From positions 2,418,001-2,482,000 of the forward strand of contig NZ_CP032683.1 in the NCBI RefSeq assembly GCF_001304615.2: 64,000 bases of DNA. The letters are read 5' to 3'. Both the position numbers and the translations under genes were made by a program. The stretch is from Methanosarcina flavescens. GTDB lineage: Archaea > Halobacteriota > Methanosarcinia > Methanosarcinales > Methanosarcinaceae. A model generated the notes under the pieces. The model had not been told where the DNA came from. It saw nothing but the letters and a program-made list of their open reading frames with translations, and did not search any database. Positions 25,639 to 38,859 of this stretch are shown piece after piece (positions within the stretch are counted from its first letter, which is position 1; each line of letters opens with the position of its first letter).

Positions 25639-26855
25639 GTTACCTCGAAATATTTTCTTTCAAAATTCTATTAGTTTATGGTAATTATTTTTTTCATGAT
25701 ATAAATTCCTGTATCAGGATGATATAAATTCCTGTATCAGTATATTTATAGGAATTATTTTACAGGAGATATATATTTGTATGGTATATATATTTACAGG
25801 TTTTAACCGGGCAAAAACCTATCCAGTTTACTTCCTTAATTGGTTAAATAGCCCGCATCCCCATCTCCTTTTTTACTTCTAGAGTGCTGCTTTTAACCAC
25901 AGGTTTTTCCTTTCTTCACTTGCCGCAAATAGAAGAACGGAGGTTTCACAAACAGGAGCTGAATTCTACGTTTTAAATATGTATATTATCGAAAATTGTT
26001 TATTAAAATTCTATGGTTCTATATTATATTCTTTTTGCTTTTTCACTTCACTTGTATAATTTAAAGATGTTTTTGCCCTACTATTGAATTTGTTTTAGAA
26101 GGTTTCTTGAGAAAAGTCCTAAAATTACTTTATCTGAGCATGAATTCCATAGGTTTTAAATTGTATGAATAATTCGAACTTGAGTATTATCTCTTCTTTA
26201 ACTTCATGCAATATGATAAACTTTTTTAGCACTTTTTAATCCTAGTTTTTCCTTAAAAACCTTTTTCAGAGTACTAAAGGTTATAATAACAAGAATAACT
26301 ATAGGAAATCCGAAATTAAATCTCTACCTCAACAGGATTAGCAGAGATACCACGAATTCATGTAGTGGCACCTCAGTCCCGATTGAGATGATTCAGGTAT
26401 TAAACATTCCCTGCAAATAAAATAGCTTTTCCTTTGCCTTTTAAAATCTTTCTGCACTTTACCCTGTTTTTATGCGTTTTGTCATAATACACGCAAATTT
26501 CTAAGTATGAATTACTATCTCATTGGTAACTTTTAACTTTTGCAATTAAGTTTATTCTTTTGAATCTCTTTTCTTTTTCAAAATGATTTAATTCCACTTA
26601 TTTGTACTACATTGCCGATTATTGCACATTAGATTTCTTACTCATTTAGAAAGCTCATTATACTTGTTGCTGAATTATAAGTTTGCAATGCAACCAATTA
26701 ATATAATTATCGTATCGTGTAAAAAACCTTAAATACTATTCCCTCATTGAAAACATTAACCGTAAATTTATGTATATATTTATATAATTACGATGGATAA
26801 TTATTCGAAATTTTCTTCGTAGGTATAATTTGGGTAAAATCAAGATGTGGTAGAG
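25639..26855. other. 1.2-kb divergent regulatory region between hypC and vhtG
   Basis: No gene supported on either strand. The hypC side has a 23-bp direct repeat. The vhtG side has A/T-rich TATA candidates at 26700-26800 (AATACTATTCC, TATATATTTATATAA at 26772-26786), which would give a leader near 50 nt. The length is unusual for a methanogen operon pair and could hold long leaders, regulatory RNA or binding sites. Confidence 0.55.
25697..25740. repeat. 23-bp direct repeat upstream of hypC
   Basis: TGATATAAATTCCTGTATCAGG-type unit at 25697-25719 and again at 25720-25740, identical over 21 bp. Each unit contains an imperfect dyad (TGATA...TATCA). About 60-100 bp before the hypC start, it is a possible regulator site or TATA duplication. 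Confidence 0.8.
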
Positions 26856-28001
26856 ATGAGTACTGGAATAAAAAATCTTGTCCGTACACTGGACAGTGTG
26901 GACTTCTTAAAAATGGACCGCCGCACTTTCATGAAAGCAGTAGGTGTAATGGGAGCATCTGCGTTCCTGGGCACCTACAAGACTGAGATTGTAAATGCGC
27001 TTGAATTTGCAGAGACCAAGCTTATCTGGATGCATGGTTCAGAATGCACAGGCTGTTCCATATCGCTCTTAAATGCAGGCAATCCTGACCTTGTACAGGC
27101 ACTACAAAAGCTCAATGTCAATCTTGTTTTCCATGAGACTATTTGTGCACAGCAGGGAATCTGGAATGATGGTAAGCTTGTAAACAATGCCGAATTTAAC
27201 TCTGAAATACTCCTCGAGGAAACTTATAAGGAAGGCAATTATATCCTGGTCGTTGAAGGCTCAATTCCGAATGGTCCGAACGGTACAGGACGCTACCTGG
27301 TCATTGGAAACAAGCCTTTCAAAGAATCTCTTGCAGAAGCTGCAAAGAACGCAACTGCTATCGTCGCAGTAGGCACATGTGCTTCATATGGAGGAATCAC
27401 CTCTGCAGATAGCGATGTTGCCGAGGACACAGACTATAGAGGAGTTGCTTTCTCAAAGACTAACAAAAATGGAGGTATGCTTCAGGAGCTTGGAATCGAT
27501 AAGCCGGTAATTAATATCCCTGGTTGCCCTGCTCATCCCGACTGGGTTCTTCTTACCCTTGGAGCGATGATTCTCGAAAAGATTAAACTTGAAGACATTC
27601 CATCAATTGTGGATGATTACGGTAGGCCGAAGGTCTTCTATCCCCCAGACCACACAGTGCATGAAAACTGCCCACGCCGCGGGTACTATGACCGTGGAGA
27701 ATTCGATGAAGAAGTAGGAGGAGAAAAGTGCCTGTGGAAATTAGGATGTAAGGCTCCTTATTCTCACGCAGACTGCGGGATTCGCAGATGGAATGGTTCA
27801 GTAAGCATGTGTACCCAGGCAGGCGGCCCTTGTATTGCCTGTGTAGAACCTGGATGGCCAGACATTGCAAGGCCACTGTTTGTTGAGCGTGAAGATGTGG
27901 GAATTGTCGGAGCAAACATTGATACGGTAGCCAAGGTTGCAGTAGGAGCAGCTGCAGTTGTTGCAGGTGTGCATGCTGTAAGGAGAATGAAAGGAGAGTG
28001 A
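26856..28001 (+). CDS. vhtG: Methanophenazine-reducing hydrogenase, small subunit VhtG
   Basis: 381 residues. It transfers electrons from the [NiFe] centre through three Fe-S clusters to VhtC. The Tat signal has DRRTFMKAVG (twin Arg 22-23), indicating export of the folded dimer to the outer face of the membrane. The proximal cluster begins with C64-x2-C67 (GSECTGCS). Also seen: VGTCASYGG, GCPAHPDW, HENCPRRGYYDRGEF, KCLWKLGC and the medial cluster CTQAGGPCIAC. The C-terminus has a hydrophobic anchor (VGAAAVVAGVHAV). ATG at 26856 is used; a GTG three codons earlier is possible. First gene of vhtGACD. Confidence 0.96.
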   Translation: MSTGIKNLVRTLDSVDFLKMDRRTFMKAVGVMGASAFLGTYKTEIVNALEFAETKLIWMHGSECTGCSISLLNAGNPDLVQALQKLNVNLVFHETICAQQGIWNDGKLVNNAEFNSEILLEETYKEGNYILVVEGSIPNGPNGTGRYLVIGNKPFKESLAEAAKNATAIVAVGTCASYGGITSADSDVAEDTDYRGVAFSKTNKNGGMLQELGIDKPVINIPGCPAHPDWVLLTLGAMILEKIKLEDIPSIVDDYGRPKVFYPPDHTVHENCPRRGYYDRGEFDEEVGGEKCLWKLGCKAPYSHADCGIRRWNGSVSMCTQAGGPCIACVEPGWPDIARPLFVEREDVGIVGANIDTVAKVAVGAAAVVAGVHAVRRMKGE

Positions 28002-28008
28002 GTGAAAA

Positions 28009-29784
28009 ATGGTAAATGTTACAGTTGATCCCTTAACCAGAATTGAAGGCCACCAGCGCGTATCTACTGAAGTAGATGCTAATGGTGTCATAACTGATGC
28101 CCAGTCATCTTCCCTTATATTCAGAGGTTTTGAGCGCATTTTGCAGAAACAGGACCCAAGAGACGCAGCCTTTCTTACCCAGAGAATTTGTGGTGTCTGT
28201 CCTATTTCTCATGGAATAACAGCCACAAACGCCCTCGACGACCTTTATGGCGTCGCTGAACATGTTCCTAAAGATGCTCTTGTAATGAGGAACATACTCC
28301 AGGGACTGAACATGATTGCAAGCCATGCAACCCATATCTATGTGCTCTGGGGCCCTGACCTCTCAAACCCAGCGTACAGAGATGTTCTTACAACTCTGGG
28401 AGACACTGGAAACGCAGTCTGGAAAGAAATGGTTGGAAGGTTTGCCCCAATTAGCTACAAGATAGATGGCACGGCTGTACCTGCGGGAAGTTCATATCTG
28501 GCAGCAATTCCTGAAAAGAAGCGTCTTCATGAGGCTATTGCACTTATTGCCGGTAGAATGCCTGGCCCTGCATCCCTTTATCCAGGTGGATATACCTACC
28601 CGGCTACTGTTGCAGATATAACCAAACTTTCCACCTACTATCTGGAGGTCATGGACTTCGTATCCAAGCATACTCTGAGAGTTCCATTCGATACCTGGAT
28701 AGAAAATACCTATAAGGCAAGCTCTCCTCAGAAAGCAGTAAGCTTTGTTACTGAACATCTCCAGGGTCTTGTTGACAAATCAACTACATCCAATGATTTC
28801 TCCAAAGAGGCAGGTTGGGGAGACGTGGAATTTTATGCAGCTTTTGGTTCCGAACTTGTAGGAGAAACACTCCTTGGCCTTCCAGCAAGCCTTAAACTTG
28901 ATACAATCGGTGGGTACAAGGATCCCTCAAAGATCTGCTTTGTTTCATATGGTGGATATTACAAGCCCAAAGACGGATACGACCCGAGGAGCCCGGCAGG
29001 AGACCGTATTTTCACCTCAGGTGTGGTATCAGGTAATCTCGAATACCTGAAATTTGATCCAGACAAGATTACGGAGAGTACTGCTCACTCCTTCTACGAT
29101 AATAGTAATAACGACCTCCCACCATTAAAAGGCGAAACCGTTCCGTTTACGGATCCAGATAAAATCGTCTACACAGGAGGCTCGGATAGCCAGTACAGCT
29201 GGGATAAGGCTCCGAGATACGACGGAATTCCAGGTGAAGTCGGGCCTCTTGCACGCATGCTGAATATAAAAGAGCCGCTTGTAACCGGTCTGGCTCAGGC
29301 CTTGGCTGAGAACGGCTACTCTCCAGCTAATGTATACACCAGAATGCTGGCTCGTATGCAGGAAGTTGCAGTTCTCGCATATGAACTTCTCAACTGGGTA
29401 ACAGTTGACTATGAGCCAGGAGGAAAGATCTCCGTGCCTGTAGACCTTAATGCAGCTAAGAATAACCAGGGAATGGGCTTATGGGAAGCACCTCGTGGAG
29501 CTCTCGGACACTGGGTCTCTGCTGGAAGCGATGGAAAGGTCACTAACTATCAGTGTATAGTTCCGGGTACCTGGTTAATGTCCCCAAGAGACAGCAAAGG
29601 CATACCTGGCCCGCTTGAACAGTCCCTCATTGGTTCAAAAATTAACCCCGTCGGAGATGTCGATTATACCAATCCAATTGGTATCTACCATATGGGCAGA
29701 TCCTATGATCCTTGCATCTCATGTGCAGTCCACACCATTGACCTGACTGGGAAGCGTGCTCCAAATACTCTAAGAATACTTTAA
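28009..29784 (+). CDS. vhtA: Methanophenazine-reducing hydrogenase, large subunit VhtA
   Basis: 591 residues. It carries the [NiFe] active site that oxidises H2 (or forms it). The four ligand cysteines are C61 and C64 in [10 protein letters not shown] and C569 and C572 in DPCISCAVH. His575 marks the processing site; the last 16 residues ([16 protein letters not shown]) are expected to be removed by VhtD after Ni insertion. RIEGHQR near the start is also typical. It lies 7 bp after vhtG; the AGTGAGTGAAAA upstream is a weak ribosome binding site. Confidence 0.97.
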
Positions 29785-29808: not shown

Positions 29809-30591
29809 ATGAAATCTAATAACAACCGGTCAATGGTTGTTGAGCGCTATACAATAACTGACAGGATAGCTCATACTGTCCATGCTATTGCGATGATAGT
29901 GCTCATCATTACCGGGTTAAAGATCTATACGGGATGGGACTTTATGAGTTTCAGTACTGCCCGTGCCCTTCACATGATAATGGTTCCGTTCCTGCTTGCA
30001 GTGAACTGGATCCTTATCCCATACAATATTTTTTCCGAAGGTCGTGGAGTATTCGGAAAGATCTCGCATTTTACGGATCACTATATTTTTGGTCCTAAGG
30101 ATGCAGTGCGCCTGGGTGGTATAATTAAAAACTTCTTCAGGAAGGGCAGGTATCCTGCCTATTCCATCTATGATGAAGAAAAAGGTCACTACGAGACCAA
30201 ACTTCATCCCGTAATGAAGATCCTGATTGTATTTGAGGGTACAGCAATCTTCCTGATTGCGGTTTCAGGCATTGTACTGTATAAGCTTGACTGGTCAGTC
30301 TTCGGGCTGCCAATAGGGTCATGGATTCTTTCGATCGGAAACTTAATTGCGCCTTACTTCGATTTGACTGCTATTCAATTCTACAGAATACTTCACCTGG
30401 CGTTGACTTACTGGTTTATCTTTGAACTGGTAGTGCATGTGGGTATTCTGGAGTTTGACCCTAATGTCTGGAAGTACTATAAAGCTATCTTCTGGTCAGG
30501 AAAAGAAGATTTCTCAGACCCTCACTACTCAGAGTACATAGAGAAATATTCAAGGTTTGATGCCAAGGAAAAAAAGCACTCAAAACACTGA
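29809..30591 (+). CDS. vhtC: Hydrogenase cytochrome b subunit VhtC
   Basis: 260 residues, a b-type cytochrome that passes electrons from VhtG to methanophenazine in the membrane. Membrane segments lie near residues 20-38, 55-72, 135-160 and 185-215. Candidate haem-ligand histidines are H22 and H25 ([11 protein letters not shown]), H55 (ARALHMI), and those in [21 protein letters not shown] cytoplasmic tail follows ([21 protein letters not shown]). It is 24 bp after vhtA with AAGGAGATG upstream. Confidence 0.95.
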
Positions 30592-32336: not shown

Positions 32337-32801
32337 ATTCTATCCCCCATACTTTGCTGCAAGCTTTCTCCCTTAAAGATGCAGTATTAATACTAAATGT
32401 TACTAGCCTTAAAATTTCAATAAATAAATAGTGATATTAAAATATATAAGGTTTTAGAAAAGCTATATTTATTTTTAAGTGTACACGGCTGTACACGGCT
32501 ATTTTTATAAATTAAATGTATTAAAAACCATTTCGGAGGACATCTCTGGTTTATCCGGATATGCTTGAAATTTCTCAGAACAGATTCATCTTCTACAGGA
32601 TTTTATAGAAATCTGATAAAGAGAGGCCTTCGTTCAAGCTTTTGCCTTTCTATTTTTTGAATTAGCCCTGAATAATACCCTGGCTGCGATATAAAAAGAT
32701 TACTTGTGGAGTGAGGTCTGAAGATGTGATAGTCTTTAATATATTGGATTCCTTTTTTTATATGTCTTATATAAAATTATTTGCGACATGGGGGAAGTAG
32801 A
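32337..32801. other. Divergent intergenic region upstream of vhxG
   Basis: No gene. It has A/T-rich promoter DNA for the peptidoglycan-binding gene (32400-32470), the GTGTACACGGCTGTACAC element, and a TATA-like TTTTTTATATG (32754-32764) that would start vhxG transcription near 32787. Confidence 0.5.
32480..32500. promoter_or_regulatory. Palindromic tandem GTACACGGCT element
   Basis: GTACACGGCT occurs twice in a row (32481-32490, 32491-32500), and TGTACA is itself a palindrome, giving TGTACAC-GGC-TGTACAC symmetry. It sits between divergent genes and is a possible operator. Unproven. Confidence 0.35.
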
Positions 32802-34013
32802 ATGAATAATGAGAGTTTACTTGAAAAGTTTAAAAATCTCGATTTCATAAAAATGGACCGACGGACATTTATAAAGGCTGTAGGGGCAATGGGGGCTTCG
32901 CTATTTCTGCAAATCTATAAAAGCGATATCGCTAAAGCCTTTAATGGGCTACCTGAAACCAAAGTACTCTGGCTTCACGGGGTAATGGACTCGGGATGTA
33001 GCATCTCAATGCTGGACGGAGAAAACCCGGACATACTGGAATTTCTCCAGCTTTTTAACCTCAACCTGCTTTACCATGAGGTACTGATGATGCAACAAGG
33101 AATCTTCGTAGATGGACAACTTGCAAATACGAGTGATCTGAACTCTGAAGTCCTGCTGGAAGAAATTCTGGAAAACGAAAGAGGCTATGTGCTTATTGCA
33201 GAAGGTGCAATCGCAAACGGGCCTCATGGTTCCGGGAAATACATGGTTCTCGGAGGAAAGATCTACAGGGATGTTTTCGAAAGAGCTGCGAGAAACGCCT
33301 CAGTAATTGTTGCAATCGGGCAGTGTGCAACCAACAGTGGAGTAAATGCCGCTGAAAGTGAGATCAATGATCTCATGGACCATCGTGGAGTTGCTTTTAC
33401 TCGGGAAGACTCGTCAAAAGGAATTGTAGATCTGCTAGGGATAGATACGCCCGTTGTCAATGTTAACGGTTGTCCTGCCCATCCTGACTGGGTATTTTTA
33501 ACCGTAGGCGCAATCGCCCTTGGGAAAATCAGGGTGCCTGACGATTTACCTGAAGTATTGGATAGGTGGTATCGTCCTAAGGTTTTCTACCCCCCAGACT
33601 ACACAGTGCATGATAACTGCCCGCGACGTGGGTTTTATGACCGTGGAGAATTTGAGACTACAGTAGGCGGACCAAAATGCCTCTGGAAACTTGGATGCAA
33701 GGGACCTTACTCTCACGCAGACTGTGCCACACGCCGCTGGAACGGCCATATCAATTTCTGTCCGCAGGCTGGCTCTCCATGCATAGGCTGCGTACAGCCA
33801 GGTTTTCCGGATAGCACCAGGCCTTTCTATGTGGAGATAGAAGACGCCGGAATCGTCAATACTAACCTCGATACCATAGCAGGGGTAGCAATAGCAGGGG
33901 GGCTTATTGCTGCAGGTGCCCATGCCTTAAGAAGGACAGTTTTGAGAAAGCCAGAGGAAAAGGAAGGCACCACTGAAGAAAGCGCATTAGAGAGGGCAGG
34001 AGGTGAAAAATAA
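32802..34013 (+). CDS. vhxG: Hydrogenase small-subunit paralog VhxG, altered cluster
   Basis: 403 residues, clearly homologous to VhtG through its whole length. The Tat signal (DRRTFIKAVG, Arg 20-21), GCPAHPDW, HDNCPRRGFYDRGEF, KCLWKLGC, CPQAGSPCIGC and the C-terminal hydrophobic stretch are kept. The first proximal-cluster cysteine is replaced: GVMDSGCS here against GSECTGCS in VhtG, so Asp63 and Cys66 remain. GQCATNSG also departs from GTCASYGG. The C-terminus is longer and charged. GGGGGAAG before ATG 32802 sets the start; the upstream TTG is unlikely. Methanosarcina vhxGAC sets are described in the literature as poorly expressed and of unknown role; that name fits because no protease gene follows. 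Confidence 0.9.
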   Translation: MNNESLLEKFKNLDFIKMDRRTFIKAVGAMGASLFLQIYKSDIAKAFNGLPETKVLWLHGVMDSGCSISMLDGENPDILEFLQLFNLNLLYHEVLMMQQGIFVDGQLANTSDLNSEVLLEEILENERGYVLIAEGAIANGPHGSGKYMVLGGKIYRDVFERAARNASVIVAIGQCATNSGVNAAESEINDLMDHRGVAFTREDSSKGIVDLLGIDTPVVNVNGCPAHPDWVFLTVGAIALGKIRVPDDLPEVLDRWYRPKVFYPPDYTVHDNCPRRGFYDRGEFETTVGGPKCLWKLGCKGPYSHADCATRRWNGHINFCPQAGSPCIGCVQPGFPDSTRPFYVEIEDAGIVNTNLDTIAGVAIAGGLIAAGAHALRRTVLRKPEEKEGTTEESALERAGGEK

Positions 34014-35816: not shown

Positions 35817-36608
35817 ATGGTACGATCAGCCGAAAGACCCGCTTCCAGAAGAAAGGTTGTTGAGCGCTATACATGGCTTGAGAGGGTTACTCATCTGGTG
35901 CACCTTATTGCTATGTTTGTCCTGCTTATTACAGGATTCAAAATCTATGCCGGCTGGGATTTCATGTCCTTTGATGCAGCCAGAACCTGGCATATGATCG
36001 CTGTTCCCTTTTTCCTGGTTGCAAACTGGCTTCTGGTCCCTTATAACATATTTTCTTGCAAAGGAGAAAAATGTAGCATCAGGCACCGCATAGAGCATTT
36101 CAAAGAGTCTTACATATTCGGGAGAGCCGATGCAGAGCGCCTTATCGGTACAATCAAAAATTTCTTTGGAAAAGGCAGGTATCCGGCTTATACAATCTAT
36201 GATGAGCGTAGCGAGCATTATGTTACGAAACTTCATCCCGCGATGAAGATTTTGCTTGTTTTCGAAAGCCTGTCAATTTTCCTGGTGGCAGTCACTGGGA
36301 TTGTACTCTATAGTCTTACCTGGGCTCCGTTTGGAATTCCAATCTCAGAATGGATACTCTCTGTAGCCTGGTATTTTGCATCCCTGGTTAATGAAAACGG
36401 TCTGGCACTGCTCCGCTTTTTACACTTGTTTGCAGCCTACTGGTTTGTCCTTGAGCTTATAATCCATGTAGGAATAATTGAGCTTGATCCGAATGCCTGG
36501 AAATATCATAAGGCGATCTTCTGGTCCGGAAAAGAAGATCTCTCGGACAGACATTTTGTCAAAGTAATTGAGGAGGGTGAGCAAAAAGGAGTGGCAGGAG
36601 AGCACTGA
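35817..36608 (+). CDS. vhxC: Hydrogenase cytochrome b paralog VhxC
   Basis: 263 residues, the same layout as VhtC: membrane segments around 24-42, 58-75, 140-165 and 190-220. The conserved histidines (ERVTHLVHLIAM, ARTWHMIAV, LRFLHLFAAYWFVLELIIHVG) and the tail [21 protein letters not shown] are present. It lies 13 bp after vhxA with a perfect AAAGGAGGT. Because the haem ligands are intact it could still reduce methanophenazine if a partner delivers electrons. The operon ends here without a protease gene. Confidence 0.92.
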   Translation: MVRSAERPASRRKVVERYTWLERVTHLVHLIAMFVLLITGFKIYAGWDFMSFDAARTWHMIAVPFFLVANWLLVPYNIFSCKGEKCSIRHRIEHFKESYIFGRADAERLIGTIKNFFGKGRYPAYTIYDERSEHYVTKLHPAMKILLVFESLSIFLVAVTGIVLYSLTWAPFGIPISEWILSVAWYFASLVNENGLALLRFLHLFAAYWFVLELIIHVGIIELDPNAWKYHKAIFWSGKEDLSDRHFVKVIEEGEQKGVAGEH

Positions 36609-36716
36609 CAGTAAATTCCAGCAGCAGAAATATCAACTCCGAAATAAATATTGACATGTGTACCTATTTAAAAACGATTATATACCTACCATTCTTATTT
36701 ATATACGGGAATCAGG

Positions 36717-36854
36717 ATGTATGAACTGGCGGCAGTTCGGACAAAACTCAGCCAGATCATCCTCAACCTCTTGATTCTTTTTTCAGTGGTAGTGCTCTGG
36801 TTAACTGTGGTTGAGGTTGTTCTCAAATGTTTGGTAATTAAGGGCCCTTTTTGA
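36717..36854 (+). CDS. Possible 45-residue single-span membrane protein
   Basis: ATG 36717 to TGA 36854 encodes one strongly hydrophobic segment (ILNLLILFSVVVLWLTVVEVV) flanked by Arg/Lys, ending CLVIKGPF. A TATA-like GATTATATACC (36677-36687) sits at the right distance for a start just before the ATG. The ribosome binding site is weak (ATCAGG). It is too short to judge by homology; it may be a small subunit, a regulator or chance. Confidence 0.35.
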   Translation: MYELAAVRTKLSQIILNLLILFSVVVLWLTVVEVVLKCLVIKGPF

Positions 36855-36986
36855 GAATTCTCGGCTTTTCTTTTATTTCATTCTTAAATTTATTCGTTTT
36901 TCTCATTACTTTTCCTTGTTTCTTCTATACTCTAAACTTTGCCTCCTGTTTAATAATAAGTCTTAAGGAATAATCTGTAATACGAA

Positions 36987-37141
36987 CTATTTGCCGCCTG
37001 TTTTTTTGTCTTTGACTTCGTGCTCTATAGAAAAACTCTTGAACAGGACCTGGATGTGTTAAAGAGCACTACAAGGCAATTTTCTGGTACGGCAAAGGGA
37101 GCTTGACAGATAGGTATTTGTCAAGTAGATTAAATAAGTGA
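36987..37141 (+). pseudogene. Relic of a third vht/vhx-type cytochrome b gene
   Basis: Frame one reads LFAACFFVFDFVLYRKTLEQDLDV, matching VhxC LFAAYWFVLELIIHVGIIELDPNAW. After a 1-2 base shift near 37060, frame two reads HYKAIFWYGKGSLTDRYLSSR and stops, matching the VhtC/VhxC tail [14 protein letters not shown]. The transmembrane haem histidine is gone and no start, upstream part or ribosome binding site remains. So this is a dead 3' fragment of another hydrogenase cytochrome b, 380 bp past intact vhxC. Confidence 0.78.
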
Positions 37142-37328
37142 TCAAAAATGATAAGTAAAAGTATTTGAACATAGGTAGAAAAATAGTCGGCTAATCGAAA
37201 AATATAAACTGAAAGATAAGTCCCATTACGAAACCTATCGTGCTATAGTAAGCAAGTCACAGGTAGTTTTAACTTTTATACATAGCTTTTATGTTTGTTT
37301 TTACTTGTTTCTTATTCACGTATAGTTC

Positions 37329-37631
37329 TTATCTTCGCCCAAAGCATCTCCAGTCCCAGTCTTTACAGACCCATCTCCAGCCCCAGTCTTTACAGAACCA
37401 ATCTCGGCCCCGGCCGCCCCAGTCTTTACAGAACCGCTGTCGATCCCAGTCATCACAGACCCACCTGCAATTCCGACCGCCATCTCTCCAGCCATCTCGA
37501 TCGTCATCATCGTCATCTCGCCCCCTTGTAGGTTGTGCGCTCACTACCGCGACCATCATTGACATTACAAGCAAAACTAGGATAGAAATACCCAGTATCT
37601 TCTTAGTTCTGTCAGATATTTGTTTTCCCAT
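37329..37631 (-). CDS. Secreted Trp/Cys-rich repeat protein
   Basis: 100 residues. Residues 11-32 are a clear Sec signal (ILGISILVLLVMSMMVAVVSAQ), likely cut after SAQ or nearby. An Asp/Arg-rich stretch (RGRDDDDDDRDGWRDGGR) follows, then four CxDW units: C59-DDW, C68-KDW, C80-KDW and C89-KDW, each preceded by an aromatic residue (V/F) and followed by W/R. Two more cysteines (C55, C96) make six. The spacing suggests a small disulfide- or metal-stabilised extracellular repeat. GGGAGTG lies before the ATG. I know no family for it. Confidence 0.75.
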   Translation of the reverse strand: MGKQISDRTKKILGISILVLLVMSMMVAVVSAQPTRGRDDDDDDRDGWRDGGRNCRWVCDDWDRQRFCKDWGGRGRDWFCKDWGWRWVCKDWDWRCFGRR

Positions 37632-38328
37632 TTGTCTACACTCCCAATTATTATTTAGTTTGATGCAATTTGAAGGCTGTTGATTTTTGATTCACTTCCA
37701 ATCGGTAGATGCATCAATAAGTTTTGTTTTTTCCAGTTAACCATCCAGATTCATCTCTGGAAGGGTATAAGCATTGGTAACTTTTTCAATCTTCATTTTA
37801 TATGCTGATGACTGCCGATGAAAGTTATCTCAAATTGTATTACCATGAGTTTTATGATTTAAGAAATATAAAAACTATAGAAATATAAATAAGTAATCAA
37901 TATTAACTGAAAGGTAAAGTTATTTAGTCAAGTTTTTGCTAATATATCTTTAATAATATTATTTTTCTATAAATCTTTCTCGCATTCCGCAGAAAACTAG
38001 AAAAAGTACCTATTTGTTCAATATAGCAATGGACTAAAATATACATCATCTTTTCATTCTGTTTGTAACCTATATTCAAGCTTAGTGTGCCTGAGGTAGA
38101 TATGCAAAATTAATGACATTAATTAGTTAGGTTAGAGAAAAGTTGATCAGTTAATCATGATCAGTTAATCATGATAATACTATAACATATAGATTTATTA
38201 TTAACTGTCTCACTAAATAGAGTGATGTGTATTTGAAAGAATAAGGGCTCTCAGATTTTATGAGTCTTTACTCACTAATTTTTCCACAACCGAAATCCTT
38301 ATTGTAAAGGCAGCGCTATGGCAGGACT
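37632..38328. other. A/T-rich intergenic region before cgi121
   Basis: About 700 bp with no supported gene. The 38145-38172 direct repeat GATCAGTTAATCAT x2 lies in it. The 37632-37700 part is the promoter side of the Trp/Cys-rich gene. Confidence 0.5.
38145..38172. repeat. 14-bp direct repeat, two copies
   Basis: GATCAGTTAATCAT at 38145-38158 and 38159-38172, identical and adjacent, followed by GATAAT. It contains TGATCA and ATCATGAT dyads. It is about 160 bp upstream of cgi121. Confidence 0.85.
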
Positions 38329-38859
38329 ATGGAAATGCAAAGGGAAATCCAGGTAATCTGCGGGAATGTAAATATCCCGAAGCTTTCTGACTTTCTAAAA
38401 ACAATAAATTCGATAGCTTCCGAAAATGAAGTCATTATCCAGGGCTTAAATGCAGACCTGATTGCAGGTGAGAGGCATCTTCATTATGCAGTAGGAAAAG
38501 CTCTTAGGGCAATTGCTGCGGGCAGAAACATAGCGAAAGACCCCGGAATCGAGATTATGCGGTACGCATCCGGGGAAAGACAAATTGAGAGGAGTTTTTC
38601 GATAGGGTTGCATAAAGGGGAAAACAATGCTGTATTCGTACTGTTTGGAAAAATGGATAATCTGGTTCTCGCCCTCTCTGCAATCCGAAAACTGATTCTC
38701 GAAAGACCCTGTTCCGAACTGCTTGCTTATTCAAATTCCAAAAGGGAGAAAATTCTTTCCCTGTTCGGCATCAGTAATGCCGAAATAGAAGCCTCAGGGG
38801 AAGAACATATTCCTGAACTTGTTATTGAAAGAGTAGCACTGGCAGATTTTGTAAAGTGA
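38329..38859 (+). CDS. cgi121: KEOPS complex subunit Cgi121
   Basis: 176 residues. Cgi121 binds Bud32 and the tRNA CCA end in the KEOPS complex, which makes t6A37 in tRNAs. Seen: IIQGLNADLIAGERHLHYAVGKALRAI (helical region) and the hallmark EIMRYASGERQIERSFSIGL. The length agrees with archaeal Cgi121 (150-180). The ATG at 38329 lacks a strong ribosome binding site. The other KEOPS genes are not in the window. A t6A methylthiotransferase gene lies two genes downstream, a functional link worth noting. Confidence 0.88.
   Translation: MEMQREIQVICGNVNIPKLSDFLKTINSIASENEVIIQGLNADLIAGERHLHYAVGKALRAIAAGRNIAKDPGIEIMRYASGERQIERSFSIGLHKGENNAVFVLFGKMDNLVLALSAIRKLILERPCSELLAYSNSKREKILSLFGISNAEIEASGEEHIPELVIERVALADFVK

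What the first reader, a model, noticed from the sequence alone, without database searches (positions are those of the whole stretch)
36987..37141. Relic of a third hydrogenase cytochrome b past vhxC
Seen: two frames separated by a small shift encode LFAACFFVFDF and HYKAIFWYGKGSLTDRYL, matching the C-termini of VhtC and VhxC. No intact frame exists, so ordinary annotation would miss it. It implies that a third vh(t/x) set or a duplicated C gene once stood here, and that this locus has been expanding and decaying.
Basis: seen in the sequence. Interest (0 to 1): 0.6.

Follow-up and report, generated by a model that had tools for sequence, protein, structure and literature searches.

The report
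Stump of a foreign hydrogenase cytochrome gene
Behind the vhx hydrogenase genes of this Methanosarcina lies the broken tail of a second vhxC gene, which seems to have arrived at the edge of a 1.35-kb DNA piece from another Methanosarcina lineage rather than being left by a third hydrogenase that once stood here.

Summary
Window 36923-37141 aligns collinearly with the last ~83 codons of vhxC (DNA score 86; best of 1,000 shuffles 44), with a frameshift and stops. The nearest relative, G029, carries a decayed copy at the same site. The relic is vhxC-type, not vhtC-type.

The interpretation needs changing. The relic is not a copy of the neighbouring vhxC. It, its 3' flank, the Trp-rich minus-strand ORF (37329-37631) and the noncoding DNA to ~38280 match one other genome of the 31 searched, the deep-branching G011 (Methanosarcina sp. 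Ant1), where an intact vhxC stands in this context. Several related species instead have vhxC, a 45-aa ORF and the CGI-121 gene joined directly. So ~36923-38285 is a ~1.35-kb G011-type segment inserted between the 45-aa ORF and CGI-121; its left edge cuts vhxC at codon ~180. A 10-nt identity at that edge and shared sequence at the right edge suggest one-sided homologous recombination of imported DNA. Import rather than ancestral retention is inferred: noncoding identity to G011 is 77%, against 50-56% at fourfold sites of most genes. Nothing shows that a complete third set stood here. Tree tests on 230 columns do not formally reject alternatives. Ordinary pseudogene fragment, legible history.

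The parts
36923..37141 (+). vhxC relic: decayed 3' third of a G011-type vhxC, frameshifted, with stops; left edge placed between 36923 and 36937
   Evidence: DNA match to G011 vhxC 36923-37187, 67.8%, E=4e-26; shuffle test; syntenic relic in G029
36923..38285 (+). Inserted G011-type segment: vhxC relic, 3' flank, Trp-rich ORF, noncoding DNA
   Evidence: Matches only G011 in this arrangement; other species match up to 36936/36939 on the left and from 38279/38286 on the right
36923..36929 (+). TTCTATA at the left joint; the resident-type pre-CGI-121 DNA of G013 and vhxC of G011 share TTCTATAACC
   Evidence: Sequence comparison
37329..37631 (-). Trp/Asp-rich secreted-looking ORF carried by the segment; follows vhxC only in this genome, G029 and G011
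   Evidence: tblastn; DNA search; no Pfam match
35817..36608 (+). Intact resident vhxC (263 aa), yardstick for the relic
   Evidence: ORF list; 95% identical protein in G029
36717..36854 (+). Conserved 45-aa hydrophobic ORF between vhxC and the relic; belongs to the resident locus
   Evidence: Found in 23 of 31 genomes; follows vhxC within 0.6 kb in many
38329..38859 (+). CGI-121 gene, the resident right-hand neighbour
   Evidence: Pfam CGI-121 E=6e-10; synteny
29809..30591 (+). vhtC, paralogue; weaker match to the relic

Best explanation
The interval is the truncated 3' end of a second, G011-type vhxC. It is the left edge of a ~1.35-kb segment (vhxC tail, its 3' flank, Trp-rich ORF, noncoding DNA) taken up from a relative of Methanosarcina sp. 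Ant1 by the common ancestor of this genome and G029. The right edge probably recombined in the sequence that both lineages share before the CGI-121 gene; the left edge joined at a short identity (TTCTATAACC), stranding the cytochrome fragment without promoter, start codon or 5' two thirds. It has decayed since and makes no protein. Shown: the homology, the G011-type context, the abutting empty site in other species, the edges. Inferred: import rather than ancestral retention, and the one-sided recombination route.
For: Relic plus flank match G011 (E=4e-26 and, in G029, 3e-50, running past the stop codon). The post-relic flank of G029 matches the G011 vhxC flank (79/111, none of 1,000 null sequences) and not the own vhxC flank. 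The Trp-rich ORF follows vhxC only in G000, G029 and G011. Empty site: in G030, G026 and G004 the DNA before 36936 and after 38279 abuts. Short identity at the left edge, shared ACAACCGAAATCC at the right. At sites where G011 and the own vhxC differ, relics side with G011 37:13 (G029) and 32:14 (G000). Own vhx genes diverge from G018 like other genes, so they are resident; segment noncoding identity to G011 is 77% against 50-56% at fourfold sites of most genes. G011 branches outside this clade.
Against: On 230 columns the AU test does not reject grouping the relic with the own vhxC (p=0.154) or with vhtC (p=0.31). In G000 alone the post-relic flank next to the relic shows no match to G011. Ancestral presence with loss elsewhere stays possible if the noncoding DNA is constrained. 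The G011 locus is split over two contigs at an (AAT)n repeat. vhtG and vhtA are also somewhat closer to G011 (0.62, 0.69 at fourfold sites), unexplained.
Confidence: 0.62

Rival explanations
1. A complete G011-type vhxGAC set once stood here in tandem, by import or old duplication with differential loss, and was deleted down to the tail of C (closest to the first reader).
For: Leaves the same sequence; two hydrogenase sets side by side and extra C genes exist in the genus (third C genes in G008 and G025).
Against: Needs an additional deletion; no residue of the rest of the set at the site or elsewhere in the genome; no genome among 31 has two vhx sets; the short identity lies exactly at the joint with the resident-type sequence.
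Confidence: 0.2
2. Vertical ancestral state: the G011-type vhxC and its downstream DNA are native here, and the vhxGAC plus 45-aa ORF now present came in and replaced the older set.
For: G011 is a deep branch and could keep the ancestral order.
Against: Own vhx genes match the species relationships and show normal divergence from G018; from 38285 on the sequence again resembles close relatives; the clade mates G018, G013 and G012 have the other arrangement.
Confidence: 0.1
3. Local segmental duplication of the own vhxC 3' end.
For: Alignable to the own vhxC (68-70%); AU test does not exclude it.
Against: The flank behind the relic matches G011 and not the own vhxC flank; site counts favour G011; downstream context is G011-type.
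Confidence: 0.05
4. Chance resemblance of noncoding DNA to a cytochrome tail.
For: Whole-window tblastn E-values are weak (0.002, 0.019).
Against: 0 of 1,000 shuffles reach the score in either genome; E=4e-26 and 3e-50 to G011.
Confidence: 0.01

Closest known systems
VhxC, cytochrome b subunit of the vhxGAC cluster of Methanosarcina
   Same: Collinear homology over the last ~83 codons, including the KAIFW.GK...DR motif; in G029 also the FVKVIEE tail
   Different: No start, no 5' two thirds, frameshifts and stops; not expressed as protein by any reading
VhtC/VhoC, cytochrome b subunit of the active methanophenazine-reducing hydrogenase
   Same: Same protein family
   Different: Weaker match (score 42 against 86) and a different C-terminal tail
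vhxC locus of Methanosarcina sp. Ant1 (G011, L027/L176)
   Same: Same order vhxC tail - flank - Trp-rich ORF(s) - noncoding DNA - CGI-121
   Different: There vhxC is intact and directly behind vhxGA, and no 45-aa ORF follows
One-sided (homology-facilitated illegitimate) recombination of imported DNA, as described for naturally transformed bacteria (from memory)
   Same: One edge in shared sequence, the other at a short identity, truncating a gene of the incoming piece
   Different: Inferred here from comparison only, in an archaeon; no uptake route shown

Membership tests
vhxC pseudogene (gene remnant) | Significant collinear homology to vhxC | tested here: met
vhxC pseudogene (gene remnant) | Reading frame broken | tested here: met
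   Frameshift and stops in both genomes
vhxC pseudogene (gene remnant) | Faster divergence than the intact gene | tested here: met
   Relics 73% identical, intact vhxC genes 94%
Remnant of a complete third vht/vhx set | Traces of further genes of the set at the site | tested here: not met
   Homology begins near nt 540 of vhxC; no third VhxC and no third close VhxA in the genome
Horizontally imported segment | Segment matches another lineage and is absent at the orthologous site in close relatives | tested here: met
Horizontally imported segment | Closer to the donor lineage than vertical neutral divergence allows | tested here: inconclusive
   77% noncoding against 50-56% at fourfold sites of most genes, but constraint on the noncoding DNA is untested
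Horizontally imported segment | Tree of the relic significantly joins the donor | tested here: inconclusive
   Support 91, but AU p=0.154 for grouping with the own vhxC

The most novel reading that the evidence does not exclude
The 3' ends of the hydrogenase cytochrome genes are a recurrent exchange point in Methanosarcina: foreign vhx DNA inserted in the ancestor of this genome and G029, and vhtC-like tails (in G014 also a vhtD start) on vhxC in G003, G004, G014, G026 and G028, some leaving legible stumps. The vht/vhx region would then be reshaped by repeated partial recombination rather than by gain and loss of whole operons.
Probability: 0.4. Interest if true: 0.42.

Novelty: new member of a known kind. 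Interest (0 to 1): 0.27.

Why it matters
A short stretch that annotation would skip records an event that can be placed in time: DNA of one Methanosarcina lineage entered another at a hydrogenase locus before this genome and G029 split. It warns against counting such a stump as evidence for a lost third hydrogenase. The physiological consequence of the relic itself is probably nil.

Tried and rejected
Relics downstream of vhxC in 24 other genomes were sought with Smith-Waterman and shuffles: none comparable, apart from a vhxC-tail stump of another kind in G004 and G026. A vhtC origin was set aside on DNA score and tail type. Tandem duplication of the own vhxC was tested through the 3' flank and failed; a first alignment that seemed to run into the own vhxC flank did not hold against null sequences. 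The first tree run failed for a thread setting and was rerun. Counts of private states were too few to help. Literature searches found no mention of this remnant in the listed papers.

Full report
What is there. The window lies in a 3,283,688-bp single-contig Methanosarcina genome (by size probably M. flavescens, from memory, not verified). The locus reads vhtG-A-C-D, a minus-strand ORF with a peptidoglycan-binding domain, vhxG-A-C, a 45-codon ORF, the relic, a Trp/Asp-rich minus-strand ORF, a CGI-121 gene and a glpX-like gene (vht, vhx and glpX names by recognition). Protein hits are weak because the frameshift splits them; the DNA alignment to vhxC is collinear and far beyond shuffles. At DNA level the relic is closer to vhxC (score 86) than to vhtC (42).

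The relative. Genome G029 (3.13 Mb) has the same arrangement and a relic at the same site, with stops in all frames and a tail that reads FVKVIEE in one frame, as in VhxC. The two relics are 73% identical while the intact vhxC genes are 94% identical: the relic drifts as a dead sequence does.

Where it comes from. Compared with vhxC of other Methanosarcina, both relics resemble most that of G011, the genome listed as Methanosarcina sp. Ant1 (identities 73% for the G029 relic and 65% for the G000 relic; own vhxC lower). Relic plus flank match G011 with E=4e-26 (G000) and 3e-50 (G029), and in G029 the match passes the stop codon into noncoding DNA. That flank matches the G011 flank, with none of 1,000 null sequences as good, and not the flank of the own vhxC. 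G011 is also the only other genome where the Trp-rich ORF follows vhxC, and its DNA matches on to 38204 and, on another contig after an (AAT)n repeat, from 38197 into the CGI-121 gene.

The empty site. In G030, G026 and G004 the DNA after the 45-aa ORF runs straight into the CGI-121 promoter: the stretches matching 36672-36936 and 38279-38400 abut; in G005, G012, G013 and G018 they lie within about 50-160 bp. Here 1.35 kb of G011-type DNA lies in between. At the left edge, G013 reads TTCTTCTATAACCGAAATCC before CGI-121 and G011 vhxC reads ACTTTCTATAACCTGG; the joint here reads TTCTTCTATACTCTAAACTTTGC. At the right edge G000 and the others share CAACCGAAATCC. One edge in shared sequence and one at a short identity is what one-sided homologous recombination would leave; this is inference.

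Direction. A two-gene tree puts G011 outside the clade of this genome and most others. The own vhx genes diverge from G018 (fourfold identity 0.65-0.69) like other genes, so they are resident. Against G011 the fourfold identity is 0.50-0.56 for most genes (vhtG and vhtA higher, 0.62 and 0.69), but the noncoding part of the segment is 77% identical. I read this as import after the lineages split. Ancestral presence with loss elsewhere is possible if that noncoding DNA is constrained. The tree test on the 230-column relic is not decisive (AU p=0.154 for the own-vhxC grouping).

Third hydrogenase? No third VhxC and no third close VhxA is found in the genome, and the G011 homology begins near nt 540 of vhxC. 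Nothing requires that a complete third set was ever here. A full tandem import followed by deletion is not excluded.

Precedent in the genus. In G004, G026 and G028 vhxC ends in a vhtC-like tail, and the original type of vhxC tail (NFVKVIDEDKQKR) lies as a stump about 100 bp further on. In G003 and G014 the similarity to vhtC continues past the stop, in G014 into a remnant of a vhtD start. I infer copying from the vhtCD end to vhxC. Exchange at the ends of these genes has thus probably occurred more than once.

Verdict. Observation confirmed; class (dead C-gene tail) right; origin different: most likely the truncated edge of imported DNA. The relic has no likely function. Interest is modest.

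Noticed in passing
36717-36854 (+): Conserved 45-aa hydrophobic ORF (MYELAAVRTKLSQIILNLLILFSVVVLWLTVVEVVLKCLVIKGPF), found in 23 of 31 Methanosarcina genomes with nearly constant length, often behind vhxC, in at least two subfamilies, with a conserved TATATATGGGAAT/TATATATGGTAAT sequence just upstream; no Pfam match. Possibly an unannotated small membrane protein linked to Vhx.
   Followed up: partly
32781-34013 (+), VhxG: The small-subunit motif ECTGC is MDSGC: the first Cys expected to bind the proximal Fe-S cluster is Asp. The change is conserved in many Methanosarcina VhxG that are otherwise well kept, while others (L028, L030, L033, L035-L037, L074, L183) keep ECTGC. It may bear on reports that Vhx is inactive (PMC6030560); a 3Cys-1Asp proximal cluster is known from memory in an actinobacterial-type NiFe hydrogenase.
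   Followed up: partly
L180 (G004), L032 (G026), L031 (G028): vhxC ends in a vhtC-like tail (DPHYSEVITAKTKY...), and a stump of the usual vhxC tail lies about 100 bp downstream: looks like copying from vhtC into vhxC.
   Followed up: partly
L034/L187 (G014), L181 (G003): vhxC with a vhtC-like tail whose similarity to vhtC runs past the stop; in G014 followed by a remnant of a vhtD start (MSILNAPIHILGCGSPLMGND).
   Followed up: partly
26847-29784, vhtG and vhtA: Fourfold-site identity to G011 (0.62, 0.69) is higher than for other genes (0.50-0.56), which may mean exchange of vht genes between the lineages as well.
   Followed up: no
37530-37700: The start and upstream region of the Trp-rich ORF belong to a dispersed multicopy family in Methanosarcina (many hits in G002, G011, G016, G017).
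   Followed up: no
L060 (G001), L076 (G002), L074 (G007): vhxC has two in-frame stops in G001 and is split by a frameshift in G002; in G007 a vhtC-like gene near vhx appears in two pieces about 1.6 kb apart.
   Followed up: no
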